Of a stretch of DNA of 64,000 nucleotides, positions 8,197 to 19,872 are shown in pieces. A program made the translations under genes and the position numbers. Numbering within the stretch: the first letter of the stretch is position 1; each line of letters begins with the position of its first letter. The notes under the pieces were generated by a model that saw only the letters and a program-made list of their open reading frames with translations, was not told the DNA's origin and made no database searches. This DNA is from Bradyrhizobium quebecense (lineage in GTDB: Bacteria; Pseudomonadota; Alphaproteobacteria; Rhizobiales; Xanthobacteraceae), in assembly GCF_013373795.3 (NCBI RefSeq), contig NZ_CP088022.1:7254001-7318000 (forward strand), read 5' to 3'.

Positions 8197-8210
8197 CCGT
8201 AAGACTACTG
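8197..8210. promoter_or_regulatory. CCGTA-N4-TACTG site (one mismatch)
   Basis: Near copy of the CCGTA-N4-TACGG palindrome, 106 bp upstream of the perfect copy at 8303-8316, in the promoter region of the LuxR-type gene. Confidence 0.45.
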
Positions 8211-8302
8211 TCCTTCGGCTCAAACAAGCGAGATTCGTTGCCAAATCAGCGGTAATCTGCGCCTGCTTGGCCGATCGGGGCCCGAGGTCACAGTTGCATC
8301 AC

Positions 8303-8316
8303 CCGTAGTTTTACGG
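8303..8316. promoter_or_regulatory. CCGTA-N4-TACGG site (perfect)
   Basis: CCGTA-GTTT-TACGG, an exact 5-4-5 inverted repeat 48 bp before the start of the LuxR-type gene at 8365. It is identical in both arms to the sites at 9428 and 19151. Confidence 0.65.
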
Positions 8317-8364
8317 AGTCCCGTGTTAACGCGGCCACAAGTTCACCTTCGGTAAACCATACTT

Positions 8365-8973
8365 ATGACGCAACATGACAATCGAGCCGAGGCGCGCCTT
8401 CCGCCATGGATGGGCGGAACCGCGACGCTCGAGGCGCATCCGCCCGAGATTCAGGGAGCCGCCGTGCCGCGACCGCAGGTGACCGCGGACGCCGGGGCGG
8501 CGATCGTCCGGCAGTTCAACGGGCCGGTGACGGCGCTGCTGCTCTACATGAACGAGCTCAAACAGCACAGTCAGCAGTTCGCGCATGCGCCGGGCAACGG
8601 CGTCTATCTGCGGCAGGTGATCGAGAACGCGCTCGAGCAGACCGAACGGGTGTCCGCGATGCTGAAGCAGATCTCCGATCTCTACCCGAATGCGATACCG
8701 GCCACCGATCTCAGGCCACCGCTTGACGACAAGCCGGCAGGCGCCCGGTCACCCGATGTCATGTTCACGCCGGAGGCAGGGCGCAAGCCGTTGACCAAGC
8801 GCGAGCGTGAGGTGCTCAGCCTGATCAGCGACGGCTATTCCAACAAGCAGGGCGCGTTGCGGATGAACATCAGCCCGCGCACGTTCGAGAGCCATCGCGC
8901 CGAGGCCATGCGCAAACTGGGTGCGCGCAACACCGCAGATCTCGTCCGCAAGGCCTTGTTGCATTCCGCATAA
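8365..8973 (+). CDS. LuxR-type regulator with a kinase-dimerisation-like N-terminal domain
   Basis: 202 residues. The C-terminus (143-202) is a LuxR/FixJ helix-turn-helix: LTKREREVLSLISDGYSN, then ISPRTFESHRAEAMRKLGAR. The N-terminal region lacks a receiver domain. Instead residues 44-107 (IVRQFNGPVTALLLYMNELK followed by a second amphipathic helix) resemble the two-helix dimerisation domain of histidine kinases, aligned with the usual H-E-x-x-N-P-L-T-A motif but with Arg where the phosphorylated His should be. This reading is from pattern only. The HTH closely resembles that of the response regulator at 19240. Two CCGTA-N4-TACGG-type sites lie upstream. The stop codon TAA overlaps a repeat. 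Confidence 0.85.
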   Translation: MTQHDNRAEARLPPWMGGTATLEAHPPEIQGAAVPRPQVTADAGAAIVRQFNGPVTALLLYMNELKQHSQQFAHAPGNGVYLRQVIENALEQTERVSAMLKQISDLYPNAIPATDLRPPLDDKPAGARSPDVMFTPEAGRKPLTKREREVLSLISDGYSNKQGALRMNISPRTFESHRAEAMRKLGARNTADLVRKALLHSA

Positions 8974-9050
8974 AGCGTTTTCAAGCGAAGCCTGCCTCGC
9001 ACTTGATGCGGGGTGGTACCGGTTCGCGCAAAGAAAACGCGTCAAAACAA
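8972..9050. repeat. Dispersed repeat, family A
   Basis: Begins AAAGCGTTTTCAAGCGAAG, continues to ACCGGTTCGCG and ends near GAAAACGCGTCAAAACAA. The same consensus is seen at 9456 and, reversed, inside the cyclase gene at 40701-40760. Its first bases form part of the TAA stop of the LuxR-type gene. Confidence 0.75.
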
Positions 9051-9114
9051 AAGTCCAGAGCCCTATTCCGATTCGATTGGAGCGGGCTCTGAGCAGTGAA
9101 TCGGTTCGCGGTTC

Positions 9115-9363
9115 TCAGAAATCGTCTTCCGCGGCGAAGCACAGGCGCGGCGCGAGCCGCGCGGCGGAGGCGGCTGTCTTCGGCTCGTCCGGAACGATCG
9201 TGACCACCCATGCCGCCGTCGCGCCGGATTTGCTTTCGACGATCGCACGCACACGTCCCGTGACCGTCGCGCCGGCGGACCTGATGGTGGCGGTCCGGCC
9301 GTTGAATTGGGCCATGCGGAAGCGCCGGGCTTCCTTCCGGTCGGTGGTCTCGTACGTGAACAT
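9115..9363 (-). CDS. Small hypothetical protein
   Basis: 82 residues starting at the ATG at 9363, chosen because GGGGGAG precedes it at good spacing; the frame is open further upstream but runs into repeat sequence. The protein starts MFTYETTDRKEARRFRMAQF and has a beta-rich, SH3-like pattern (ATIRSAGATVTGRVRAIVES), no signal peptide and no catalytic motif I recognise. The perfect CCGTA-N4-TACGG site at 9428-9441 lies 64 bp upstream, so it may belong to the same regulon as the neighbouring LuxR-type gene. Confidence 0.65.
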   Translation of the reverse strand: MFTYETTDRKEARRFRMAQFNGRTATIRSAGATVTGRVRAIVESKSGATAAWVVTIVPDEPKTAASAARLAPRLCFAAEDDF

Positions 9364-9427
9364 CGGCTCCCCCGTGCGTCCACGCGACTTTGCGGATGCA
9401 GCGTTATCCGACGGTGAAAATCGTACG

Positions 9428-9441
9428 CCGTAGAAGTACGG
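9428..9441. promoter_or_regulatory. CCGTA-N4-TACGG site (perfect)
   Basis: CCGTA-GAAG-TACGG, 64 bp upstream of the start of the 82-residue protein gene (minus strand). Second perfect copy of the motif. Confidence 0.6.
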
Positions 9442-9455
9442 CTTGTGCGCCGACT

Positions 9456-9623
9456 GGAGCGTTTTCGCGCAAAGCGGATCGCGGTTCGCGTGCAGAAGAC
9501 GCGTCAAGAATGGCAGCTCTAAAGCATGATCCGGAAAAGTGCGAAGCGGTTTTCCGAAAAGATCATGCTCAAACAAAGAGCTAAAGCGCGATGACGCTTC
9601 AACCTGATCTCATCGCGCTTTAG
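9456..9623. repeat. Composite dispersed repeat (family A plus two palindromes)
   Basis: Three modules in a row: a family A copy starting at about 9456 (GGAGCGTTTTCGCGCAAAG); a palindrome with GCATGATCCGGAAAA and TTTTCCGAAAAGATCATGC arms at about 9525-9569; and a perfect 14-bp-arm palindrome, CTAAAGCGCGATGA at 9581-9594 paired with its exact complement at 9610-9623. The last arm contains the TAA stop codon of the Crp/Fnr-like gene and could act as a terminator for it. Confidence 0.75.
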
Positions 9624-10339
9624 CCACCGGTTTCCTGGCAGCTCAGCAGCCCCGCATACTGCGCCTTGACCGTGGCATAGCATTCGCACGCGGTCCTGAT
9701 CAGTCCATCCGCATTGGTGATCTCGATGTGGCCGCGGCTGTAGTGGATGAAATTCGCCTGTTGCAACGTATGCGCGACCAGCGACACGCTATTGCGGCGT
9801 GCGCCGATCATCTGGGCCATCGCCTCCTGCGTCAGGGCGATCTTGTTGCTGCCGGAGAGATCGCGTGTCTGCAGCAGGCATCGCGCCAGCCGCGACTCCA
9901 CGGTGTGCGCGGCGTTGCAGCCGGCCGTCTGCTGGATCTGGGCATAGACGGCGAGACCGTGCCGAATCAGCTTCGCTCGCAGAGTCGGGCTCTGGCCGGC
10001 GGCCGCCCGCAAGGCTTCGACCTCGATCGTCGAAGCGACGCCAGGCACCAGCACCACGGCGCTGTCCAGCGTGGGGGCTTCACCAAGCCCCGCGAACGCA
10101 CCATAGATGCTGCCGCGGCCGACCATCGCGATCTGCACGCACACGCCTCTTGCCAGCTTGACCACCAGCGAGATCACCCCCTTGTGCGGCATGTATGTCC
10201 GCTTGAGCATCTCGTCGGTCTCGATCAGGACCGACTCGGCGGCGAGGTCGATCGTCCGCAAATAGGGCCGGATCAGCCCAAAATCGCTCTCCGAGAGCGA
10301 AGACAGAAATCCGTTGGGCGATCGCGGAACCGTATCCAA
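9620..10339 (-). CDS. Crp/Fnr-family regulator, paralogue 1
   Basis: 239 residues: an N-terminal cyclic-nucleotide-binding-like beta-roll (VLIETDEMLKRTYMPHKGVI) and a C-terminal winged HTH (LTQEAMAQMIGARRNSVSLV). The roll lacks the G-E-L-A...R-S/T-A phosphate-binding cassette of true cAMP receptors, so its ligand is unlikely to be cAMP. The start is a TTG at 10339, supported by AGGAGGTTGCT at ideal spacing. It is a clear paralogue of the adjacent gene at 10533-11243; both end with a C-E-C-Y-A-T-V-K-A segment. Tandem operator-like repeats lie upstream at 10428-10473. Confidence 0.85.
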   Translation of the reverse strand: MDTVPRSPNGFLSSLSESDFGLIRPYLRTIDLAAESVLIETDEMLKRTYMPHKGVISLVVKLARGVCVQIAMVGRGSIYGAFAGLGEAPTLDSAVVLVPGVASTIEVEALRAAAGQSPTLRAKLIRHGLAVYAQIQQTAGCNAAHTVESRLARCLLQTRDLSGSNKIALTQEAMAQMIGARRNSVSLVAHTLQQANFIHYSRGHIEITNADGLIRTACECYATVKAQYAGLLSCQETGG

Positions 10340-10427
10340 AGCAACCTCCTGCCTCCCGGCAAAGCTTGTCTCTGGTCATCAGGACTGACGCGTGCAGTTG
10401 AGCCGTTATGCAACTTATTCTGGCACG

Positions 10428-10473
10428 TCTTGGTTCCAATGGAAACATATCTTGGTTCCATTAGGAATACATA
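10428..10473. promoter_or_regulatory. Two tandem operator-like repeats
   Basis: Two abutting copies that both begin TCTTGGTTCCA and end ACATA (10428-10449 and 10450-10473). Each contains a small palindrome, TTCCA-A-TGGAA in the first and TTCC-ATTA-GGAA in the second. They lie about 90-130 bp before the TTG start of Crp/Fnr paralogue 1 and just beyond the end of paralogue 2, and look like paired binding sites controlling paralogue 1. Confidence 0.5.
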
Positions 10474-10532
10474 TCGCCCCGTGATCGCGTTTGTGTTGCC
10501 TGGCAATCAGTTGAGCGTGCGCGCCGCCCCGA

Positions 10533-11243
10533 TCAATCTTCCGGCCCGATCAATTGTTCGGCGTGCGCCTTGACGGTCGCATAGCATTCACACGCCGCCT
10601 TCCGCAGACCGTCGATATCGGTGATTTCGATATGGCCGCGACTGTAGCGCAGGATACCGGCCTGCTGAAACCCATGCGCGACGATCGAAACCGCATTGCG
10701 CCGCACACCGATCATTTGCGCCAGCATCTCCTGGGTCAGCGGCAAGGCTTCGCTGCCGCACAGGTCGCGCGCGCGCAGCAGCCAGCGCGACAGCCGCGCC
10801 TCCACCGGATGCGACACGTTGCAGGCGACGGATTGCTGGGTCTGCGCCATCAGCGCCTGCTCATAGAGAGCAACCAGGGTCCGGAACTCCGCGCTGCGAT
10901 TGGCGGCCTCGCGGAAATCTTCCGCCCGCACCATCGATGCCGTGCCCGGCACCACGACAATCGCGTCGGCGAGCAGCGGCCGCTCATGCAGGGCGGCGGA
11001 TGCGCCGACGATGCCGTCACGACCGATGGTTGCAATCTCGACAGATTGCCCGTCGGTCAGATTGACCATCATCGAGACCACGCCGCCGTGCGGGAAATAG
11101 ACCCGCTGCACCGGCGCGCCGGCATCGGCGAGCACCGTTTCCTTGGTCAGGTCGACGGTTTCCAGAAGGGGATGAAGTTGCGCGTATTCCGTGGAGGGAA
11201 GTGCTTGCAACAGACGATTGGGCGGACGCGATACCGCAGACAT
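10533..11243 (-). CDS. Crp/Fnr-family regulator, paralogue 2
   Basis: 236 residues from the ATG at 11243, which follows GCAGGAGCTCCA; an ATG-less extension nine codons longer is less likely. It has the same plan as its neighbour: a beta-roll without the canonical cAMP cassette (IATIGRDGIVGASAALHE) and a winged HTH (LTQEMLAQMIGVRRNAVSIV). The recognition helix differs from paralogue 1 by only a few residues, so the two may bind related sites. Several such regulators in Bradyrhizobium-type genomes respond to stress or redox signals, but nothing here fixes the signal. Confidence 0.85.
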   Translation of the reverse strand: MSAVSRPPNRLLQALPSTEYAQLHPLLETVDLTKETVLADAGAPVQRVYFPHGGVVSMMVNLTDGQSVEIATIGRDGIVGASAALHERPLLADAIVVVPGTASMVRAEDFREAANRSAEFRTLVALYEQALMAQTQQSVACNVSHPVEARLSRWLLRARDLCGSEALPLTQEMLAQMIGVRRNAVSIVAHGFQQAGILRYSRGHIEITDIDGLRKAACECYATVKAHAEQLIGPED

Positions 11244-11644
11244 TGGAGCTCCTGCCGAGGGCGGGAGCACTACGGTCTCGCATCACCTACTCTTGGCGTG
11301 TGGAGAGCGAACATAGCTTGCCTGTCCAATAGCACAAGGGTTGTGGTGCGAACCTTATACCCTCTAGGGGGCAGACGGTCCGCAAATCGCATCGGCGTGC
11401 GCGGCGATTCGAATGCCGCGCATCCGGGATGAGACGGTTGCGACATTGTCTCGCATTTATTGATTTCCATTAACTCTGATGCGTACCCAAGCGTGCGCCG
11501 TCGCGATGGCCATTGCGGATGTCGAAGCCCCCCGTCGGCAGCGCGAGCATGCGGCAAGTCCCTGCAAATGCGAGGACAAATTCGTTGTCACGAGATTGAT
11601 CCGGCGGCGGGTACGCGCCGTTCAGCCGGGCGTCTGCGCGGCGG

Positions 11645-11658
11645 CCGTAGAATTACCG
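11645..11658. promoter_or_regulatory. CCGTA-N4-TACCG site (one mismatch)
   Basis: CCGTA-GAAT-TACCG, 133 bp upstream of the flagellin start. A second, weaker copy follows 27 bp further on. Confidence 0.45.
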
Positions 11659-11671
11659 GCAAAGCCATCTT

Positions 11672-11685
11672 GGGTATTTGTACGG
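11672..11685. promoter_or_regulatory. GGGTA-N4-TACGG site (two mismatches)
   Basis: GGGTA-TTTG-TACGG. The right arm and the TTTG spacer match the cheA-promoter site at 13680-13693 (spacer TTTG) and, on the other strand, the site at 19151 (spacer CAAA). Confidence 0.4.
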
Positions 11686-11791
11686 AGCAGCCCTTTAACG
11701 AACGGGTAGCGCGGACGGACCAGTGTGGCATCGGTCGCCGTGCGAAATTTACGGCGTCGCGTCAATCGTGTTCATCCAGAAGGGTATCAGT

Positions 11792-13390
11792 ATGTCCGGC
11801 ATCGTCCTCTCGGCATCGGTCCGTCAAAACCTGCTTTCGCTGCAGTCGACGGCCGACCTGCTCGCCACCACGCAGAACCGCTTGTCCACCGGCAAGAAGG
11901 TCAACACCGCTCTCGACAATCCGACCAACTTCTTCACGGCGCAGTCGCTCGACAACCGCGCCAGCGACATCAACAACCTGCTGGACGGAATCGGCAACGG
12001 CGTGCAGGTGCTGCAGGCCGCCAACACCGGCATCACCTCGCTGCAGAAGCTCGTTGACAGCGCCAAGTCGGTCGCGAACCAGGCCCTGCAGGCCGCGGTC
12101 GGCTATTCCCAGAAATCGCAAGTGACGACCGCCGTGGTCACCGGCGCGACCACCGACGATATCCGCGGCACCGCCACCTACAGCAACGCCACCCTCGCCG
12201 GTACGGTCGTCAACAACAATCTCACGGTGCCGGCGCCGATCACGGCCGCCACCAAGCTCGTCAGTGCGAGCAACTCTGATACCCTGGCGACGACCCCGTC
12301 CGGTACGATCAGCGTCAACGGCAAGACGATCACGTTCTCGACCTCGCAGACCACTTCGACGAGCGATTCGTCCGGCAACGTGACCCTCGGCACGGGCGCG
12401 GGCAGCAACCTGACCGTCGGCGACCTGCTCTCGGCGATCGACGGCATCACCGGCGCGACCACGGCCTCCACCGTGTCGGCTGGCGCGCTCCAGATCAGCA
12501 CCGGCACCAACCAGGATCTCAACATCTCCGGCTCGGCGCTGGGCGCTTTCGGCCTTACCGCCGGAACCAAGGCGCGCACCGTTGCAACGCCTTCACCGCT
12601 GGATGGCTTGACGCTGACGATCGGCGCGACCGGCAACGGCATTGCCACCAACATCACGTTTGGTAGCGGCGCAGGCCAGGTCAAGTCCCTCAACGACCTG
12701 AACAACGCCCTGTCGGCCAACAACCTGCAGGCGTCGCTCAGCGCGAGCGGTGCGCTCACCATCAGCACCACCAACGATGCGGCGTCCGCGACCATCGGCA
12801 CGATCGGTGGCACGGCAGCCGGCGCAGGCAAGCTGTTCAACGGCCTCGCGGGCAGCGCCCCGGTGCAGGACCCGAATGGGCTGGCGAACCGCGCCAACCT
12901 GGTCAATCAGTACAACAACATCCTGGACCAGATCACCACGACCGCCCAGGACGCGTCGTACAACGGCATCAACCTGCTCAACGGCGATCAGCTCAAGCTG
13001 ACCTTCAACGAGACGGGCTCCTCGACGCTGAAGATCCAGGGCGTGACCTTCAATGCCGCCGGTCTCAACCTCTCCAAGCTGACCGCCGGCACGGACTTCA
13101 TCGACAACGCTTCGGCCAACGCTACGCTGAAGACGCTCAACAGCGCGAGCGGCCTGCTGCGCACCCAGGCTTCGACTCTCGGTTCGAACCTGTCGATCGT
13201 GCAGATCCGCCAGGATTTCTCGAAGAACCTGATCAACGTGCTGCAGACCGGCTCGTCCAACCTGACGCTGGCCGACACCAACGAGGAAGCGGCCAACAGC
13301 CAGGCGCTGTCGACCCGCCAGTCGATCGCGGTCTCCGCGCTGGCTCTGGCCAACCAGTCGCAGCAGAGCGTTCTGCAGCTGCTCCGCTAA
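11792..13390 (+). CDS. fliC: Flagellin
   Basis: 532 residues. The N-terminal domain (VLSASVRQNLLSLQSTADLL then RLSTGKKVNTALDNPTNFF) and C-terminal domain (ending in LANQSQQSVLQLLR) are the coiled D0/D1 regions that polymerise into the flagellar filament. The middle, about residues 115-370, is Thr/Ser/Ala/Gly-rich and variable, as expected for the surface-exposed part. There is no signal peptide, because export is by the flagellar type III system. ATG at 11792 follows AGAAGGGTATCAG. Followed by a strong intrinsic terminator and then the chemotaxis operon, which fits a motility locus. Confidence 0.93.
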   Translation: MSGIVLSASVRQNLLSLQSTADLLATTQNRLSTGKKVNTALDNPTNFFTAQSLDNRASDINNLLDGIGNGVQVLQAANTGITSLQKLVDSAKSVANQALQAAVGYSQKSQVTTAVVTGATTDDIRGTATYSNATLAGTVVNNNLTVPAPITAATKLVSASNSDTLATTPSGTISVNGKTITFSTSQTTSTSDSSGNVTLGTGAGSNLTVGDLLSAIDGITGATTASTVSAGALQISTGTNQDLNISGSALGAFGLTAGTKARTVATPSPLDGLTLTIGATGNGIATNITFGSGAGQVKSLNDLNNALSANNLQASLSASGALTISTTNDAASATIGTIGGTAAGAGKLFNGLAGSAPVQDPNGLANRANLVNQYNNILDQITTTAQDASYNGINLLNGDQLKLTFNETGSSTLKIQGVTFNAAGLNLSKLTAGTDFIDNASANATLKTLNSASGLLRTQASTLGSNLSIVQIRQDFSKNLINVLQTGSSNLTLADTNEEAANSQALSTRQSIAVSALALANQSQQSVLQLLR

Positions 13391-13418
13391 GCGTAGGCGC
13401 GACAGACAACGACTATCG

Positions 13419-13452
13419 AGGCGGCGGAGGAAACTCCGCCGCCTTTGTTTTT
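13419..13452 (+). terminator. Intrinsic terminator of the flagellin gene
   Basis: Perfect 11-bp stem AGGCGGCGGAG / CTCCGCCGCCT closed by a GAAA tetraloop and followed by TTGTTTTT, starting 28 bp after the flagellin stop codon. Confidence 0.9.
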
Positions 13453-13675
13453 GGGTTCGCTTAACCATGCGACCGGTTTCAACCCATAGGCGATCACGTC
13501 TTGATGCAGGTGGATGTCGTGGCCGCCAGCGTTTCGCTGGATTTGACGACCCCTCGATCTCATTTCGTTCAAATTGCGACGACAGGTGGAACGGGCTCTT
13601 TCCCGTCCGGGTGGTAAGGGCTGTTCTTGTGAAACTGGCCGCGATGTCGTGATGCATCGTCCTTGAACGGCTTCA

Positions 13676-13697
13676 TCGTCCGTATTTGCACGGACGA
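13676..13697. promoter_or_regulatory. Inverted repeat containing CCGTA-N4-CACGG
   Basis: TCGTCCGT-ATTTGC-ACGGACGA is an exact 8-6-8 palindrome. Its core, CCGTA-TTTG-CACGG at 13680-13693, is one mismatch from CCGTA-N4-TACGG. It lies 79 bp before cheA. Confidence 0.55.
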
Positions 13698-13776
13698 CGA
13701 AATTAACGTCGCCGTGAAGCCGGCCAAGTTATCGATGCGAGGCGTGCGTTCCGTAGCACCTTGAGGGGACCGTTTC

Positions 13777-16485
13777 ATGGACGATCTGTTGCGCGAGTTC
13801 CTGACGGAGAGCAGCGAGAGCCTGGATACGGTCGACAACCAGCTGGTGCAGTTCGAGCAGGATCCGAACAACGCGAAGATCCTGGATAACATTTTCCGGC
13901 TTGTGCACACGATCAAGGGGACCTGCGGCTTCCTCGGGCTGCCGCGGCTGGAAGCGCTGGCGCATGCCGGCGAGACCCTGATGGGCAAATTCCGTGACGG
14001 CATGCCGGTGAAGGCGGAAGCCGTGACGCTGATCCTGTCCTCGATCGACCGCATCAAGGAGATCCTTGGCGGGCTCGAGGCGACCGAGGCCGAGCCCGAG
14101 GGCAACGACCGCGACCTGATCGATCAGCTCGAAGCGATGGTCGAGCACGGCATGGCCGCTATGGCAGCTGGCGAAGAAGCGGTGCCTGTCGTTGACGCCC
14201 CGTCGGTGCAACCGGCCATGACCGAAGGCACGCTGGTGGTGCAGACGCTGGAGCGCCCGCTGCGCCCGGGTGAGGTCTCGCTCGACGAACTCGCGCGCGC
14301 CTTCCGCGAGACCGAGATCGAAGTCCCAGCACCCGCGCCTGTCCCGGTCGCGAAGCCCGCAGCGCCCGCAGCCGAGCCGGCTGAAGCTGCAAAGAAGCCG
14401 GCCCGCAAGGCCGCCACCGAGGATGTCCAGGAAGGCGACAAGATCGCCAACCAGTCGATCCGGGTCAATGTCGATACCCTCGAACACCTCATGACCATGG
14501 TCTCCGAGCTGGTGCTGACCCGCAACCAGCTGCTCGAGATCAGTCGCCGCAACGAGGACACCGAGTTCAAGGTGCCGCTGCAGCGGCTCTCCAACGTCAC
14601 CGCCGAGCTGCAGGAGGGCGTCATGAAGACGCGCATGCAGCCGATCGGCAATGCCTGGCAGAAGCTGCCGCGCATCGTCCGCGATCTCTCCGGCGAACTC
14701 GGCAAGCAGATCGAGCTGGAGATGCACGGCGCCGACACCGAGCTCGACCGCCAGGTGCTCGACCTGATCAAGGATCCGTTGACGCACATGGTGCGCAACT
14801 CCGCCGATCACGGCCTGGAGACCACCGCCGAGCGGGTCGCCAGCGGCAAGCCCGAGCAGGGCACCATTCGCCTCAGCGCCTATCACGAGGGCGGCCACAT
14901 CATCATCTGCATCGCCGACAATGGCCGCGGGCTCAACACCGAGCGGATCAAGGCCAAGGCGCTCCAGAACGGTCTCGTCACCGAGGCCGAACTGGAGAAG
15001 ATGACCGAAGCCCAGATCCACAAGTTCATCTTCGCGCCGGGCTTCTCGACCGCCGCGCAGGTGACCTCGGTGTCCGGCCGCGGCGTCGGCATGGACGTGG
15101 TGCGCACCAATATCGACCAGATCGGCGGCACCATCGATATCAAGAGCGTGGCCGGCGAGGGCGCCTCGGTCACCATCAAGATCCCGCTGACCCTGGCGAT
15201 CGTCTCCGCTCTGATCGTGGAAGCCGGCGGCGACCGGTTTGCCATTCCGCAGCTCTCGGTGGTCGAGCTGGTGCGGGCGCGCGCCAACTCCGAGCACCGC
15301 ATCGAGCGGATCAAGGATACGGCAGTGCTGCGGCTGCGCAACAAGCTGCTGCCGCTGATCCATCTGAAGAAGCTGCTGAAGATCGACGACGGCGCCACCA
15401 GCGATGCCGAGAACGGCTTCATCGTGGTGACCCAGGTGGGCAGCCAGACCTTCGGCATCGTGGTCGACGGCGTGTTCCACACCGAGGAGATCGTGGTCAA
15501 GCCGATGTCGACCAAGCTGCGGCACATCGACATGTTCTCCGGCAACACCATTCTGGGCGATGGCGCGGTGATCATGATCATCGACCCCAATGGGATTGCC
15601 AAGGCGCTCGGCGCCTCCAGCGCGGCGGCCCATGACATGGCCGATGACAATGCCGCCGCGCATGCCTCGAGCGGCGAGCAGCTCACCTCGCTGCTGGTGT
15701 TCCGCGCCGGTTCGAGCCAGCCCAAGGCGGTGCCGCTCGGCCTCGTCACCCGGCTGGAGGAGATCGCAACCGACAAGATCGAGCTCTCGAACGGCCGCTA
15801 CATGGTGCAGTACCGCGAGCAGCTGATGCCGCTGGTGCAGATGGCCGGGGTCGAGGTGCAGACCCAGGGGGCGCAGCCGATCCTGGTGTTCGCCGACGAC
15901 GGCCGCTCGATGGGGCTCGTGGTCGACGAGATCATCGACATCGTCGAGGAGCGGCTCAACATCGAGGTCGCGGGCAGCCAGGACGGCATTCTGGGTTCGG
16001 CCGTGATCAAGGGCCAGGCCACCGAGGTGATCGACGTCGGCCACTTCCTCCCCATGGCGTTCGCCGACTGGTTCTCGCGCAAGGAGATGCGCCCGTCGGC
16101 CTCGGCGCAGTCGGTGCTGCTGGTCGACGACTCGGCGTTCTTCCGCAACATGCTGGCCCCGGTCTTGAAGGCTGCCGGCTACAAGGTGCGGACCGCGGGA
16201 GGCGCGCAGGAAGGGCTCGCGGCGTTGCGCTCGGGGCAGGCCTTCGACGTCGTGCTGACCGACATCGAGATGCCCGAGATGAACGGCTTTGAGTTCGCCG
16301 AGAACATCCGAAGCGACCACAACCTCGTCGGGCTGCCGATCATCGCGCTGTCGGCGATGGTGTCGCCGGCGGCGATCGAGCGCGGCCGCCAGGCCGGCTT
16401 CCATGACTATGTCGCCAAGTTTGATCGTCCCGGGCTGATCGCGGCGCTGAAAGAGCAGACCGCCGAGCTGCGCCGCGCCGCTTAA
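13777..16485 (+). CDS. cheA: Chemotaxis histidine kinase CheA with two CheW domains and a receiver
   Basis: 902 residues. Order: Hpt domain with the phosphorylated His in RLVHTIKGTCGFL (His44); Ala/Pro-rich linker; dimerisation domain near 225-300; ATPase domain (MVRNSADHGLE, ADNGRGLN, VSGRGVGMDVV); a CheW-like domain near 470-610; a second, more divergent CheW-like domain near 635-760; and a C-terminal receiver with phosphoacceptor Asp829 in VVLTDIEMPEMNG. CheA autophosphorylates under receptor control and passes phosphate to CheY. The fused receiver may act as a phosphate sink or internal regulator. First gene of cheA-cheW-cheY-cheR-pilZ. Confidence 0.95.
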   Translation: MDDLLREFLTESSESLDTVDNQLVQFEQDPNNAKILDNIFRLVHTIKGTCGFLGLPRLEALAHAGETLMGKFRDGMPVKAEAVTLILSSIDRIKEILGGLEATEAEPEGNDRDLIDQLEAMVEHGMAAMAAGEEAVPVVDAPSVQPAMTEGTLVVQTLERPLRPGEVSLDELARAFRETEIEVPAPAPVPVAKPAAPAAEPAEAAKKPARKAATEDVQEGDKIANQSIRVNVDTLEHLMTMVSELVLTRNQLLEISRRNEDTEFKVPLQRLSNVTAELQEGVMKTRMQPIGNAWQKLPRIVRDLSGELGKQIELEMHGADTELDRQVLDLIKDPLTHMVRNSADHGLETTAERVASGKPEQGTIRLSAYHEGGHIIICIADNGRGLNTERIKAKALQNGLVTEAELEKMTEAQIHKFIFAPGFSTAAQVTSVSGRGVGMDVVRTNIDQIGGTIDIKSVAGEGASVTIKIPLTLAIVSALIVEAGGDRFAIPQLSVVELVRARANSEHRIERIKDTAVLRLRNKLLPLIHLKKLLKIDDGATSDAENGFIVVTQVGSQTFGIVVDGVFHTEEIVVKPMSTKLRHIDMFSGNTILGDGAVIMIIDPNGIAKALGASSAAAHDMADDNAAAHASSGEQLTSLLVFRAGSSQPKAVPLGLVTRLEEIATDKIELSNGRYMVQYREQLMPLVQMAGVEVQTQGAQPILVFADDGRSMGLVVDEIIDIVEERLNIEVAGSQDGILGSAVIKGQATEVIDVGHFLPMAFADWFSRKEMRPSASAQSVLLVDDSAFFRNMLAPVLKAAGYKVRTAGGAQEGLAALRSGQAFDVVLTDIEMPEMNGFEFAENIRSDHNLVGLPIIALSAMVSPAAIERGRQAGFHDYVAKFDRPGLIAALKEQTAELRRAA

Positions 16486-16499
16486 AGGAAACGAGAGTA

Positions 16500-16973
16500 A
16501 TGACCAGCAAGACCGAGACCAGTGAAGGCGCAATGGCCGAATACGTCACCGCCGTGATCGGCGGGCAGCTGTTCGGCCTGCCGATCTCGCGGGTGCAGGA
16601 CGTGTTCATGCCGGAGCGGCTGACGCGGGTGCCGCTGGCCTCCAGCGAGATCGCCGGTGTGCTCAACCTGCGTGGCCGCATCGTCACCGTGGTTGACATG
16701 CGGGCCCGGCTCGGCCTGCCGAAGGCCGACGACGGCAAGCCGCCGATGGCGGTCGGCGTCGACCAGCGCGGCGAATCCTATGGCCTGCTGATCGACCAGA
16801 TCGGCGAGGTGCTGCGGCTGCCCGACGACAGCCGCCAGGACAATCCGGTCAACCTCGATCCCCGCATGGCCAGGCTCGCCGGCGGTGTTCACCGCCTCGA
16901 CGGACAGCTCATGGTCGTCCTCGATGTCGATCGCGTGCTCGAACTGGTGCCAAAGACACTCGCTGCAGCGTAA
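16500..16973 (+). CDS. cheW: Chemotaxis coupling protein CheW
   Basis: 157 residues forming one CheW domain: YVTAVIGGQLFGLPISRVQD near the start, VLNLRGRIVTVVDMRARLGL in the middle, and GLLIDQIGEVLRLP later. CheW links chemoreceptors to CheA in the membrane-proximal arrays. The ATG at 16500 is 14 bp after cheA and follows AAAGGAAACGAGAGTA. Transcribed with cheA and cheY. Confidence 0.93.
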   Translation: MTSKTETSEGAMAEYVTAVIGGQLFGLPISRVQDVFMPERLTRVPLASSEIAGVLNLRGRIVTVVDMRARLGLPKADDGKPPMAVGVDQRGESYGLLIDQIGEVLRLPDDSRQDNPVNLDPRMARLAGGVHRLDGQLMVVLDVDRVLELVPKTLAAA

Positions 16974-17016
16974 CGCTCCGCCGCGGAGACGGCGGACTCT
17001 ACAAGGAGGCCAACAT

Positions 17017-17406
17017 ATGAAGACATGTCTTGTCGTCGACGATTCCGGTGTGGTGCGAAAGATCGCACGCCGCATCCTCGAAGGAATGGAATTCACCGTC
17101 ATCGAAGCCGAGGACGGCGCGGTCGCGCTCGAAGCCTGCAAGCAGGCGCTGCCGGACGCGGTGCTGCTCGACTGGAACATGCCTGTGATGGACGGCTTCG
17201 AATTCCTCGTGCAGCTCCGGCGCATGGCGGGCGGGGACGTGCCGAAGGTGGTGTTCTGCACCACCGAGAACGGCATCGACCACATCTCGCGGGCGCTGCA
17301 TGCCGGCGCCAACGAGTACATCATGAAGCCGTTCGACAAGGACATCGTGATCGCGAAATTCCAGGAAGTGGGTTTGCTGGCGCTCGATGCGTCGGCCGAA
17401 GCCTAA
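17017..17406 (+). CDS. cheY: Single-domain response regulator CheY
   Basis: 129 residues, a single receiver domain: acidic pocket in CLVVDDSG, phosphoacceptor Asp52 in AVLLDWNMPVMDGF, Thr in VVFCTTEN and Lys in YIMKPFDK. Phosphorylated by CheA, it would act on the flagellar switch. The ATG at 17017 has a strong AAGGAGG site. 43 bp after cheW and 35 bp before cheR. Confidence 0.93.
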   Translation: MKTCLVVDDSGVVRKIARRILEGMEFTVIEAEDGAVALEACKQALPDAVLLDWNMPVMDGFEFLVQLRRMAGGDVPKVVFCTTENGIDHISRALHAGANEYIMKPFDKDIVIAKFQEVGLLALDASAEA

Positions 17407-17441
17407 TACCCAGTTTCACCCTTTGCCTTTGCGAGGCTCCC

Positions 17442-18299
17442 GTGACGCCCCCCGACTACGAGTATTTGCGTAAGCTTCTGAAGGACCATTCCGGTCTCGA
17501 TCTGTCCGCGGACAAGCAATATCTGATCGAGAGCCGCCTGCTGCCGCTGGCCCGCAAATGCGGTCTGTCCGGCATTCCCGACCTGATCGCCAAGATCAGG
17601 GCCGGCTCATCGACGCACACCGTCCAGGTGGTCGAGGCCATGACCACCAACGAGACGTTCTTCTTCCGCGACAAGGTGCCGTTCGACCATTTCCGGGACA
17701 CCATCATCCCCGAGGTCCTGAAGGCACGTGCCGCGCGCCGCAGCATCCGGATCTGGTGCGCCGCCGGCTCGACCGGTCAGGAGCCCTATTCGCTGGCGAT
17801 GTGCCTCAAGGAGATGGGCGCGGCGCTTGCGGGATGGCGGGTCGAGGTCACAGCGACCGACCTGTCGCAGGAGGTGCTGGAGAAGTCGAAGGCCGGCATC
17901 TACAGCCAGTTCGAGGTGCAGCGCGGGCTGCCGATCCAGCTGCTGGTGAAGTATTTCAAGCAGTCGGGTGAATACTGGCAGATCAATCCCGAGTTGCGCG
18001 CGATGGTGCAGCATCGTCAGCTCAATTTGCTGCACGATTTCGCCCAGCTCGGCACGTTCGATGTGATCTTCTGCCGCAACGTGCTGATCTATTTCGATCA
18101 GGACACCAAGATCAACATCTTCAATCGGCTCGCCCGGTTGATGGAGGCCGACGGCTTCCTGGTGCTCGGCGCCGCCGAAACCGTGGTCGGCCTGACCGAC
18201 ACGTTCAAGCCGATTCCCGAACGGCGCGGCCTGTACCGGCCGAGCGGTGTGCGGCCAGCGCTTGCGATGCCGAGGCCTGCCATGGCGGTCGGATATTGA
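17442..18299 (+). CDS. cheR: Chemotaxis protein methyltransferase CheR
   Basis: 285 residues. An N-terminal helical domain is followed by a SAM-dependent methyltransferase domain: TTNETFFFRD is the CheR signature, IRIWCAAGSTGQEPYSLAM the SAM-binding loop, and DVIFCRNVLIYFD the catalytic-domain motif. It methylates chemoreceptor glutamates during adaptation. GTG start at 17442 preceded by GCGAGG; no ATG is better placed. No cheB, cheD or receptor gene lies in the cluster, so the demethylating partner must be elsewhere. Confidence 0.93.
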   Translation: MTPPDYEYLRKLLKDHSGLDLSADKQYLIESRLLPLARKCGLSGIPDLIAKIRAGSSTHTVQVVEAMTTNETFFFRDKVPFDHFRDTIIPEVLKARAARRSIRIWCAAGSTGQEPYSLAMCLKEMGAALAGWRVEVTATDLSQEVLEKSKAGIYSQFEVQRGLPIQLLVKYFKQSGEYWQINPELRAMVQHRQLNLLHDFAQLGTFDVIFCRNVLIYFDQDTKINIFNRLARLMEADGFLVLGAAETVVGLTDTFKPIPERRGLYRPSGVRPALAMPRPAMAVGY

Positions 18300-18302
18300 G
18301 CG

Positions 18303-18620
18303 ATGACGGAGAACGGCAAATCCATTGAGCGTGTCACGTTCAGCCGGGGCGTCGATGTCTGCATCATGGCTATCGACGGCACCTGGCGGCGCGACTGCCA
18401 GCTCAATGCCATCTCCGACAATGACGCGGCGCTGACCGTCGAGGGTTCCATTCAGGGGCTCAACCTGAAGGAGTTTTTCCTCTTGCTGTCGTCGACCGGG
18501 CTCGCCTATCGCCGCTGCGAGCTGGTCCGCGTCAATGGCACCGAAATGGACGTCAGCTTCCTCAAGGGCAAGCCGAGCAAGCGGCGGTCCGGCTCCGACG
18601 AAGAGCGGGCCAGAGCCTGA
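18303..18620 (+). CDS. PilZ-like domain protein at the end of the che operon
   Basis: 105 residues with the beta-barrel pattern of PilZ domains (ERVTFSRGVDVCIMAIDGTW, then RRDCQLNAISDNDAALTVEG). PilZ proteins usually bind cyclic di-GMP through R-x-x-x-R and D/N-x-S-x-x-G motifs. Here DGTWRRDC and SDNDAALT sit where those are expected and match poorly, so c-di-GMP binding is doubtful. It starts 3 bp after cheR and is surely co-transcribed. A role in tying second-messenger or surface signals to chemotaxis is inferred from location only. A 14-bp direct repeat (AAGAAGGCCTGAC) follows the gene. Confidence 0.75.
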   Translation: MTENGKSIERVTFSRGVDVCIMAIDGTWRRDCQLNAISDNDAALTVEGSIQGLNLKEFFLLLSSTGLAYRRCELVRVNGTEMDVSFLKGKPSKRRSGSDEERARA

Positions 18621-18777
18621 TTTCAAGAAGGCCTGACGTGAAGAAGGCCTGACCCGGCTGGACGGTCGATGCCTGCCGCCAATCCGAACGTGGAACGGAT
18701 CGTCGCCTCGAGGGTTGGGGCGTCGTCGGCACAATCTGCGTGATGGCGCCGAATTCGGTGGCGGCCGGTCCGGCTGG

Positions 18778-19086
18778 TCAGTTCAGGAGGCGGGCCGGTG
18801 CCCCTGAATCGCGCAGCCAATCGAGCGCCGTGCCGAGGCCGGCGTCGCAGGCTTTCAGGGCCGTGGACGCCACGGCATAGCGCGGGGTGACGTCGTCAAG
18901 CACGAAGATGTCGGCGGCGGCGTCCTGCTCGGCCAGAAATGCCTCGCGTGCAATCGCCGCCTCGATCAGCCGCAGGCTCGCCTGGACATGGCCGATCAGC
19001 GCGACCAGGTCCGTCACGATCAGGCTGTAGGGATCGCTGCCCTCGTCCAGGCACACCGCAACGCCGTCCGCCGCTGCATTTTCCAT
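18778..19086 (-). CDS. Conserved-looking hypothetical protein
   Basis: 102 residues, acidic, mostly helical: DPYSLIVTDLVALIGHVQAS, then RLIEAAIAREAFLAEQD and DIFVLDDVTPRYAVASTALK. No signal peptide or catalytic motif, and no family I recognise. It is divergent from the FixJ-like response regulator at 19240, and a perfect CCGTA-N4-TACGG site lies between them, so the two may be co-regulated. The ATG at 19086 is the only well-placed start. Confidence 0.65.
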   Translation of the reverse strand: MENAAADGVAVCLDEGSDPYSLIVTDLVALIGHVQASLRLIEAAIAREAFLAEQDAAADIFVLDDVTPRYAVASTALKACDAGLGTALDWLRDSGAPARLLN

Positions 19087-19149
19087 GCATGTTTCTCCAC
19101 TGTCCCCACTTTTAGGGACCGCGGTGCTACTTGTGCGTTAAGCGGACGT

Positions 19150-19165
19150 CCCGTACAAATACGGG
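19150..19165. promoter_or_regulatory. CCGTA-N4-TACGG site (perfect) in a divergent promoter
   Basis: CCCGTA-CAAA-TACGGG, an exact 6-4-6 palindrome, 74 bp from the response regulator start and 63 bp from the divergent hypothetical gene. Third perfect copy of the motif. Confidence 0.65.
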
Positions 19166-19239: not shown

Positions 19240-19872
19240 ATGGTTGAGAATGGCGCTCCTCGCGGGGAAATCTTTGTAGTTGACGACGACCCCGCCGTTC
19301 GCGAGACGCTGTCCGTCGTCCTGTCGACCGCCGGCTACAAGGTGATCTGCTTTGCGGACGGCGCCGCGCTGCTCGCGGTGGCGCGCAGCCGGACGCCGGC
19401 CTGTATCCTGCTCGACGTGCATATCCCGGGCAAATCCGGCCTCGATATCCTGAAGGAGCTGCACGGCGAGGATTATCCGGCGCCGATCTTCATGATCTCC
19501 GGCCAGGGCGACATCACGATGGCGGTCAGCGCCATCAAGAACGGCGCGCTCGACTTCATCGAGAAGCCGTTCCGTGGCAACGAGATCGTCAGCCGCCTCA
19601 ATGAGGCGATCGACGCCTATACCAGGCGCCAGGCCGAGACCTCGGCATCGCGCATCGCCTCGCTGCACTTTCCGGGGCGCGAGCCGCTCACCCGCCGCGA
19701 ACGCGAGGTGCTCGAGCAGTTCACCGCGGGCGCCTCCAACAAGGAGGCCGGGCGTCACCTCGGGATCAGCCCGCGCACGATCGAGGATCACCGCGCCAAC
19801 ATCATGAAGAAGCTCGGCGCGCGCAACGCCGCCGATCTCGTCCGCATCGTGATGACGGCGCAGCAGAAGTAA
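19240..19872 (+). CDS. FixJ-like response regulator, LuxR-type output
   Basis: 210 residues. Receiver domain: acidic pocket IFVVDDDPAVR, phosphoacceptor Asp59 in CILLDVHIPGKSG, Ser in MISGQGD, Lys109 in FIEKPF. Output: HTH LTRREREVLEQFTAGASNK and ISPRTIEDHRANIMKKLGAR. This is the FixJ/NarL plan: phosphorylation frees the HTH to bind DNA. No kinase gene is adjacent, so it is an orphan within the window. Its own promoter holds a perfect CCGTA-N4-TACGG palindrome, which makes it the best candidate for the protein that binds that site. Confidence 0.9.
   Translation: MVENGAPRGEIFVVDDDPAVRETLSVVLSTAGYKVICFADGAALLAVARSRTPACILLDVHIPGKSGLDILKELHGEDYPAPIFMISGQGDITMAVSAIKNGALDFIEKPFRGNEIVSRLNEAIDAYTRRQAETSASRIASLHFPGREPLTRREREVLEQFTAGASNKEAGRHLGISPRTIEDHRANIMKKLGARNAADLVRIVMTAQQK

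What the first reader, a model, noticed from the sequence alone, without database searches (positions are those of the whole stretch)
8197..19165. CCGTA-N4-TACGG: a recurring promoter palindrome in the motility and regulator block
Exact copies at 8303, 9428 and 19151, and near copies at 8197, 11645, 11672 and 13680, all lie between genes upstream of a LuxR-type regulator, an 82-residue protein, flagellin, cheA and a FixJ-like response regulator. Base composition predicts well under one exact copy in 64 kb, and I see none outside this block. The two LuxR-type proteins (8365 and 19240) have similar DNA-binding domains (both ISPRT...HRA...M.KLGARN.ADLVR) and both have the site in their promoters, suggesting autoregulation and cross-control of chemotaxis and flagellin. 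I do not recall this motif being described.
Basis: partly seen in the sequence, partly recalled or inferred. Interest (0 to 1): 0.8.

Follow-up and report, generated by a model that had tools for sequence, protein, structure and literature searches.

The report
Conserved motility-control DNA switch in Bradyrhizobium
A short mirror-image DNA sequence sits in front of swimming, chemotaxis and surface-attachment genes in Bradyrhizobium and is probably the docking site of a pair of FixJ-like regulators, which would point to the still unknown controllers of polar swimming in these soil bacteria.

Summary
CCGTA-N4-TACGG occurs exactly three times in the window (shuffle expectation 0.01) and at the four near sites named. 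It is a selected promoter element: in 80 named loci (best 80 of 166) it is kept before the 8365 gene in 75 (at most 1 mismatch), where none of 59 permuted half-sites occurs. Of 24 genome copies 4 lie in coding-like DNA, against 13 of 15 reversed-control copies.

This composite occurs four times in 9.17 Mb: at the 8365 gene, flagellin, cheA and the 19240 gene. Other copies precede chemoreceptors, c-di-GMP enzymes, pilus genes and a sensor kinase.

Best reading: it is the operator of the FixJ-like response regulator at 19240. Orthologues in other genera keep the site before their own gene, and it is present in 41 of 41 homologues with one recognition helix and 0 of 7 with another. The 8365 protein is an unusual fusion of a FixL-type dimerization segment to a FixJ-type DNA-binding domain. 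Binding, direction of control and the role of TTAAC are not shown.

The parts
8197..8210 (.). Upstream accessory palindrome of the 8365 gene (1 mismatch)
   Evidence: a 1-mismatch copy about 165-168 nt before the gene in the closer orthologous loci
8303..8316 (.). Exact palindrome CCGTAGTTTTACGG, 62 nt before the 8365 start codon
8326..8330 (+). TTAAC at +9 from the palindrome (composite element)
   Evidence: composite (palindrome with up to 2 mismatches) in 79 of 80 named orthologous promoters
8365..8973 (+). P0001: FixL-type DHp segment (about residues 17-107) fused to FixJ-type GerE DNA-binding domain
   Evidence: AlphaFold2 helices 36-71 and 78-106
9115..9363 (-). 82-residue protein of unknown function behind the 9428 site
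   Evidence: no Pfam match; conserved behind the site in four genomes
9428..9441 (.). Exact palindrome CCGTAGAAGTACGG before the 82-residue gene (no TTAA at 9 nt)
   Evidence: exact copy in the corresponding stretch of 76 of 80 loci
11645..11658 (.). Upstream palindrome of flagellin (1 mismatch), 27 nt from the next
   Evidence: a copy at -27/-28 in 9 of the 32 flagellin-type composites listed, this window included
11672..11685 (.). Flagellin palindrome (2 mismatches, right half intact)
11695..11699 (+). TTAAC at +9 (flagellin composite)
11792..13390 (+). Flagellin gene
   Evidence: PF00669, PF00700
13680..13693 (.). cheA palindrome (1 mismatch, CCGTATTTGCACGG)
13703..13707 (+). TTAAC at +9 (cheA composite)
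13777..16485 (+). cheA with C-terminal receiver domain
16500..18299 (+). cheW (16500-16973) and cheR (17025-18299), downstream chemotaxis genes
18778..19086 (-). 102-residue protein divergent from the 19240 gene; the composite points towards it
   Evidence: (no Pfam match)
19137..19141 (-). TTAAC at +9 on the minus strand (composite facing away from the 19240 gene)
19151..19164 (.). Exact palindrome CCGTACAAATACGG between divergent genes
19240..19872 (+). P0002: FixJ-like response regulator (receiver + GerE), proposed main binder
   Evidence: (FixJ 5xso, E 3e-42)

Best explanation
CCGTA-N4-TACGG is the operator of the FixJ-like response regulator at 19240 (P0002), which binds as a GerE dimer and controls its own gene, the flagellin and cheA promoters and a scattered set of chemoreceptor, c-di-GMP, pilus and envelope genes. 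The 8365 protein (P0001), whose DNA-binding domain resembles that of P0002 most closely, probably binds the same palindrome and acts as a second, phosphorylation-independent regulator or partner. In the four core promoters the palindrome sits a fixed 9 nt from TTAAC, which is either the -35 contact of RNA polymerase or the site of a second factor, so that the bound dimer is placed at a set distance from it. Shown: the element, its conservation, spacing, location and target classes. Inferred: which protein binds, the direction of regulation and the role of TTAAC.
For: Three exact copies against 0.01 expected. Conservation: palindrome with at most 1 mismatch within 300 nt upstream of the P0001 match in 75 of 80 named loci (best 80 of 166) and in the stretch of the 82-residue gene's promoter in 77 of 80; 59 permuted half-sites 0 of 80 upstream of P0001. 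Composite: 141 matches at offset 9 against 65 at the other 30 offsets together over 81 related loci; a pattern fitted to the four window sites has four matches in the whole genome, those four, with 1 reversed control match. Location: 4 of 24 in coding-like ORFs against 13 of 15 controls, Fisher P 3e-5. Link to P0002: orthologues in other genera keep the site, 8 of the 12 such genomes fetched lacking P0001 at E 1e-20; of 48 P0002 homologues read, 41 of 41 with helix TIE[DY]HRANIMKK have the palindrome (core with at most 1 mismatch; 36 with GTTAA at 9 nt) and 0 of 7 with TIEVHR[AS]RIMEK have it; in one genus the two genomes with P0001 and P0002 have 10 copies each and the eight without have 1-4. 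P0001's GerE domain is nearest to P0002's. Targets: chemoreceptors, GGDEF-EAL, HD domain, secretin, TadE, sensor kinase; in the other genus 7 of 20 copies precede sensor or chemoreceptor genes, the receptor domain being seen in 2.
Against: No binding or expression data. The helix-site correlation may rest on a single evolutionary change, so it is perhaps one event, and loci within a genus are related. Genomes with P0002 but few sites exist: 11 with P0002 (at least 73% identity) and no P0001 average 3.6 copies, and two with both proteins (G164, G168) have 1 each, though only CCGTA was counted and other genera also use TCGTA. Only 2 of 11 chemoreceptor domains of the own genome have an exact copy before the gene. 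Most copies lack the TTAA: 7 of 94 exact sites in four genomes have it. The Crp/Fnr proteins next to the 9428 site could also recognise a 5-4-5 palindrome. TTAAC faces away from P0002's own gene.
Confidence: 0.74

Rival explanations
1. The palindrome is bound by a Crp/Fnr-family protein (5-4-5 spacing is typical of that family), for instance one of the two encoded at 9620-10339 and 10533-11270.
For: Two Crp-type genes lie in the block next to the 9428 site. The geometry fits (general knowledge of the family, recalled). One loose hit with 2 mismatches, at 11262, lies at the start of the second Crp gene.
Against: No copy with 0 or 1 mismatch lies before either Crp gene. The site stays before P0002 orthologues in other genera, and no Crp gene was evident in the ORF lists of two such neighbourhoods (L320; L127; only a few of these ORFs were searched with profiles). 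Site presence tracks P0002's recognition helix. FixK/FnrN sites quoted in PMC4999443 (passages) have another sequence.
Confidence: 0.1
2. Only P0001 (not P0002) reads the site, or the two compete, P0001 being an anti-activator that shares the operator.
For: P0001 carries the site in its own promoter in nearly all relatives examined, and motif counts are highest in Bradyrhizobium, where P0001 was found in all 11 genomes drawn.
Against: Genomes without P0001 at E 1e-20 keep the site before P0002, and G032, where the search found no full-length P0001, still has 9 copies and the site before P0002 (L307).
Confidence: 0.12
3. The repeats are transcription terminators, a mobile palindromic repeat or chance.
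For: One copy (L002) lies in a longer inverted repeat between convergent ORFs and looks like a terminator; raw counts match a reversed control.
Against: Non-coding location against control, fixed distance to TTAA, conservation at orthologous promoters with changing spacers, flanks hardly conserved: arms 1.80 bits, upstream flank 0.32 bits per column.
Confidence: 0.03

Closest known systems
FixLJ two-component system and the FixJ operator
   Same: P0002 is FixJ-like over nearly its whole length (PDB 5xso, E 3e-42, residues 7-207); P0001 joins a FixL-type DHp segment (4gcz, E 3.8e-5) to a FixJ-type GerE domain (1x3u, E 1.7e-16). FixJ footprints at -69/-44 and -57/-31 (quoted in PMC4999443, passages) are of the distance expected here if TTAAC is the -35 contact.
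   Different: The reported FixJ sites (TAAGTAATTTCCCTTA; GTAMGTAG) are another sequence; the targets seen are motility, signalling and surface genes, not fixK. No FixL-type sensor kinase was seen directly beside P0002 in the window, though cheA lies in the same block.
VisN/VisR, LuxR-type master regulators of motility in Sinorhizobium and Rhizobium
   Same: A pair of regulators above flagella and chemotaxis that act on a gene of their own (heterodimer, negative control of visN: review PMC8429497, passages); that VisN and VisR are LuxR-type is recalled.
   Different: The review states that B. diazoefficiens has no visNR and that LafR controls the lateral but not the polar flagellum. P0001 and P0002 have DHp-like and receiver N-terminal parts. 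No sequence comparison with VisN/VisR was made.
ComA-type palindromic operators of NarL/FixJ response regulators (TTGCGG-N4-CCGCAA, recalled)
   Same: Inverted repeat with a 4-nt spacer read by a GerE dimer.
   Different: Other half-site, other organism, no TTAAC part.
CtrA box TTAA-N7-TTAA (recalled)
   Same: TTAAC resembles one half.
   Different: No TTAA-N7-TTAA in the window; the fixed spacing is to CCGTA-N4-TACGG.

Membership tests
NarL/FixJ response regulators (P0002) | Receiver domain followed by GerE domain | tested here: met
   (PF00072 E 9.8e-27, PF00196 E 4.7e-19)
NarL/FixJ response regulators (P0001) | Receiver domain | tested here: not met
   GerE and a weak HisKA (E 0.039), no receiver; FixL DHp instead
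Functional histidine kinase DHp (P0001) | Phospho-acceptor histidine and an ATPase domain | tested here: not met
   aligned by eye: arginine at that place in 29 of 30 same-genus sequences (histidine in L067); of five from other genera, histidine in two (L140, L145) and glutamine in three; no ATPase domain
FixJ proper | FixJ recognition sequence and fixK target | tested here: inconclusive
   Motif differs from the sites quoted in PMC4999443; fixK did not turn up among the genes identified, but it was not searched for
VisN/VisR | Orthology to VisN/VisR | not tested
   PMC8429497 says B. diazoefficiens lacks visNR (passages)
Sequence-specific operator | Conserved symmetrical site at orthologous promoters, mostly non-coding, fixed position | tested here: met
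Sequence-specific operator | Binding by a named protein | not testable with these tools
   Needs gel shift, DAP-seq or ChIP-seq

The most novel reading that the evidence does not exclude
P0001 arose by joining the dimerization part of a FixL-like kinase to the DNA-binding part of a FixJ-like regulator; its DHp bundle docks the receiver of P0002, so that both sit on one palindrome as a mixed complex, and the TTAAC 9 nt away is read by a second global factor. The pair would then be the missing class I switch for polar motility, chemotaxis and c-di-GMP in Bradyrhizobium, standing in for VisN/VisR.
Probability: 0.2. Interest if true: 0.8.

Novelty: new variant of a known kind. Interest (0 to 1): 0.63.

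Why it matters
The review consulted here says that B. diazoefficiens lacks VisNR and that LafR does not control the polar flagellum (PMC8429497, passages), and the 2026 chemotaxis study leaves the part played by shared transcriptional regulators of the che operons to future work (PMC13390405, passages). This report gives two candidate proteins, a defined operator with a rigid second part, and a list of candidate target genes joining swimming, sensing, c-di-GMP and pili, all testable in a laboratory strain. It also describes an uncommon protein build, a kinase dimerization segment without kinase fused to a DNA-binding domain. Ten literature searches of an open-licence library showed no paper on the motif among the titles and abstracts listed. 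This is weak evidence of absence: the search on the letters themselves matched 67 papers, of which 15 were listed and none opened.

Tried and rejected
Raw genome-wide counts as proof of enrichment: rejected, since the reversed control is as common; replaced by location. Chance, terminator and mobile-repeat readings: rejected as general explanations, kept for single copies (L002 terminator-like; L004, L006, L015, L016 coding-like). CtrA full box: not in the window. A -10 element after TTAAC: looked for by eye in the core promoters, none convincing. Structure search of the AlphaFold2 model: mean pLDDT 63.8, best matches GerE domains with E 0.013 and none below 0.001; it adds nothing for the N-terminal hairpin beyond the sequence match to FixL. 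A tree of GerE domains was not built: the script read only 2 of the 16 other FixJ-like loci given. In one search TTAA was required by construction, so of TTAAC only the C (1.8 bits) is independent. In a few of the 80 loci the match begins inside the gene (for example L236, L260, L262), so the 300 nt searched there include coding DNA.
Full report
What was checked. The genes are as described: a GerE protein at 8365 and a receiver-GerE protein at 19240, flagellin at 11792-13390, cheA, cheW and cheR, and an 82-residue protein at 9115-9363 on the minus strand. The window lies in a 9.17 Mb genome, Bradyrhizobium by its nearest named relatives, with 24 exact copies, three of them within 11 kb here.

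Is it more than chance? Raw genome counts do not settle it: the pattern read backwards has 22 copies in this genome and more copies than the motif in most relatives. Location does. By the same coding test, 4 of 24 motif copies lie in coding-like ORFs against 13 of the 15 control copies (of 22) for which DNA was at hand (Fisher P 3e-5). The spacer is 34% G+C over the 24 copies. The 72 genomes of the genus, own included, have 4 to 31 copies each; the 48 from other families of the order have 0 to 4; the 187 genomes of other genera in the same family have 0 to 10.

Conservation. In 80 named loci holding a P0001 homologue, the best 80 of 166 found (76 titled Bradyrhizobium, four metagenome assemblies titled at higher rank), the palindrome with at most one mismatch is within 300 nt upstream of the P0001 match in 75 (exact in 49), and 600-2200 nt after its start, the stretch that holds the 82-residue gene's promoter in the window, in 77 (exact in 76). 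Of the 59 other permutations of the half-site none occurs upstream of P0001 in any of the 80. Spacers vary between clades while arms stay: arms carry 1.80 bits per column, the spacer 1.28, the upstream flank 0.32 (79 promoters). The P0002 promoter keeps CCGTACAAATACGG, or a copy one base off, in all 30 loci first fetched. Loci within one genus are related, so these numbers are not independent trials.

A second part. In the core promoters TTAA follows the palindrome at exactly 9 nt. In the window, even with up to 3 mismatches allowed in the palindrome, this happens at four places only: P0001, flagellin, cheA and P0002, where it faces away from P0002. TTAA occurs 20 times in 64 kb. Over the window and the 80 loci, palindromes with at most one mismatch have TTAA at offset 9 in 141 cases, at the other 30 offsets 65 in all, at most 16 at one. 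The pattern GTAN4YACGG-N9-TTAA, fitted to the four window sites, occurs four times in the whole genome, those four, against one reversed control match. 79 of 80 P0001 promoters have it (palindrome with up to 2 mismatches), and composites at the places of flagellin and cheA are seen in many of the other strains (sorted there by distance from P0001, so the two sets are partly mixed). The remaining exact copies mostly lack it: 7 of 94 exact sites in four genomes have it, six of them before P0001 or P0002 and one before a chemoreceptor (L179). So it marks a core class, not the whole regulon.

Targets. Genes behind the exact copies in the own genome include two chemoreceptors, a GGDEF-EAL protein, a PAS-HisKA sensor kinase (cut by the fetched stretch), a secretin of the CpaC type, a TadE protein, a peptidase-ABC exporter, DUF6894 and DUF1223 proteins, and an L,D-transpeptidase and a lytic transglycosylase on either side of one copy. 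Four genomes compared (G000, G002, G012, G031) share, behind the exact motif, P0002, the 82-residue gene and the DUF6894-type gene in all four, the DUF1223-type gene and the sensor kinase in three each, the GGDEF-EAL and secretin genes in two (Pfam was run on one member of each). Chemoreceptor domains were seen in G000, G012 and G031; in G002 a PAS protein that groups with them is cut before the receptor domain would come. HD-domain proteins (G002, G012) and a further FixJ-like regulator (G012) also have a copy. The own genome has 11 chemoreceptor domains, 2 with an exact copy 194-310 nt before the gene. In another genus (g74), the two genomes that have both P0001 and P0002 hold 20 copies: a chemoreceptor domain was seen behind 2 (a protoglobin receptor, L288; a Cache receptor, L314), PAS, HAMP or Cache sensor genes, most cut by the fetched stretch, behind 5 more (L280, L286, L313, L316, L317), P0002 itself behind one (L283) and a receiver protein behind one (L282); at least three lie inside ORFs (L290, L312, L315), and the rest were not identified.

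Which protein. P0002 orthologues in other genera keep [CT]CGTA-N4-TACG[GA], or nearly so, before their own gene though 8 of the 12 such genomes fetched show no P0001 at E 1e-20. Of 51 loci given to the script, 48 could be read: 41 with recognition helix TIE[DY]HRANIMKK, all with the palindrome (core, at most 1 mismatch) and 36 with GTTAA at 9 nt; 7 with TIEVHR[AS]RIMEK, none. At least two of the latter (L142, L144) follow the end of a kinase-like ATPase reading frame (sequence, by eye). Copy numbers in 198 family genomes follow: Bradyrhizobium 17.5 per genome (11 genomes), P0002 of at least 73% identity without P0001 3.6 (11), weaker P0002 1.7 (55), neither 1.7 (116); within genus g74, 10 and 10 with both proteins against 1-4 in eight without. 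Against a simple count rule, G164 and G168 have both proteins and one copy each.

P0001. Its C-terminal domain matches FixJ; residues 17-107 match the DHp segment of FixL (E 0.0077 with 9 sequences, 3.8e-5 with 16). The place of the acceptor histidine holds arginine in 29 of 30 same-genus sequences (histidine in L067), and in five from other genera histidine in two and glutamine in three (by eye). There is no sensor, ATPase or receiver domain. The structure prediction gives a two-helix hairpin and a GerE fold with moderate confidence. So it is probably a dimer that shares P0002's DNA specificity; docking to P0002's receiver is a guess.

Mechanism, with what is shown and inferred. Shown: a symmetric site at conserved distance, in promoters of one functional theme, with a rigid second part at the core promoters. 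Inferred: P0002 dimers, most likely phosphorylated (its receiver looks complete by eye), bind it. The kinase is unknown: candidates are the motif-preceded PAS-HisKA protein and CheA of the same block; in another genus a Cache-HisKA-REC-Hpt kinase lies divergent to P0002 (L320). If TTAAC is the -35 contact, the dimer would be centred near -52, similar to the FixJ footprints quoted in PMC4999443 (passages). Activation is more likely than repression on this geometry, but not tested.

Known or new. No paper on the motif showed among the titles and abstracts listed by ten searches; the search on the letters matched 67 papers, 15 listed, none opened. B. diazoefficiens lacks VisNR and LafR covers the lateral but not the polar flagellum (PMC8429497, passages); the regulators of the che operons are an open point (PMC13390405, passages). 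The parts belong to known families; the operator, the composite promoter and the DHp-GerE build appear new as a combination.

Noticed in passing
window 9620-10339 and 10533-11270 (minus): Two neighbouring Crp/Fnr-type regulators inside the motility block; no motif copy with 0 or 1 mismatch before them, one loose 2-mismatch hit at 11262.
   Followed up: partly
L320:5043-7646 (minus): In another genus the gene divergent from the P0002 orthologue is a dCache-HisKA-HATPase-REC-Hpt hybrid kinase; in the window that place holds a 102-residue protein without a Pfam match.
   Followed up: partly
L002:1480-1530: One exact motif copy sits in a longer inverted repeat between convergent ORFs, probably a terminator.
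   Followed up: no
L011, L162, L178: A PAS-HisKA sensor kinase gene has the motif at or before its start in three Bradyrhizobium genomes; candidate kinase for P0002.
   Followed up: no
L147 and L149: Two motif copies of genome G002 lie in similar flanking sequence with matching reading frames; possibly a repeated element.
   Followed up: no
window 9115-9363 (minus): An 82-residue protein without a Pfam match lies behind the site in four genomes compared; the site itself is exact in the corresponding stretch of 76 of 80 loci.
   Followed up: partly
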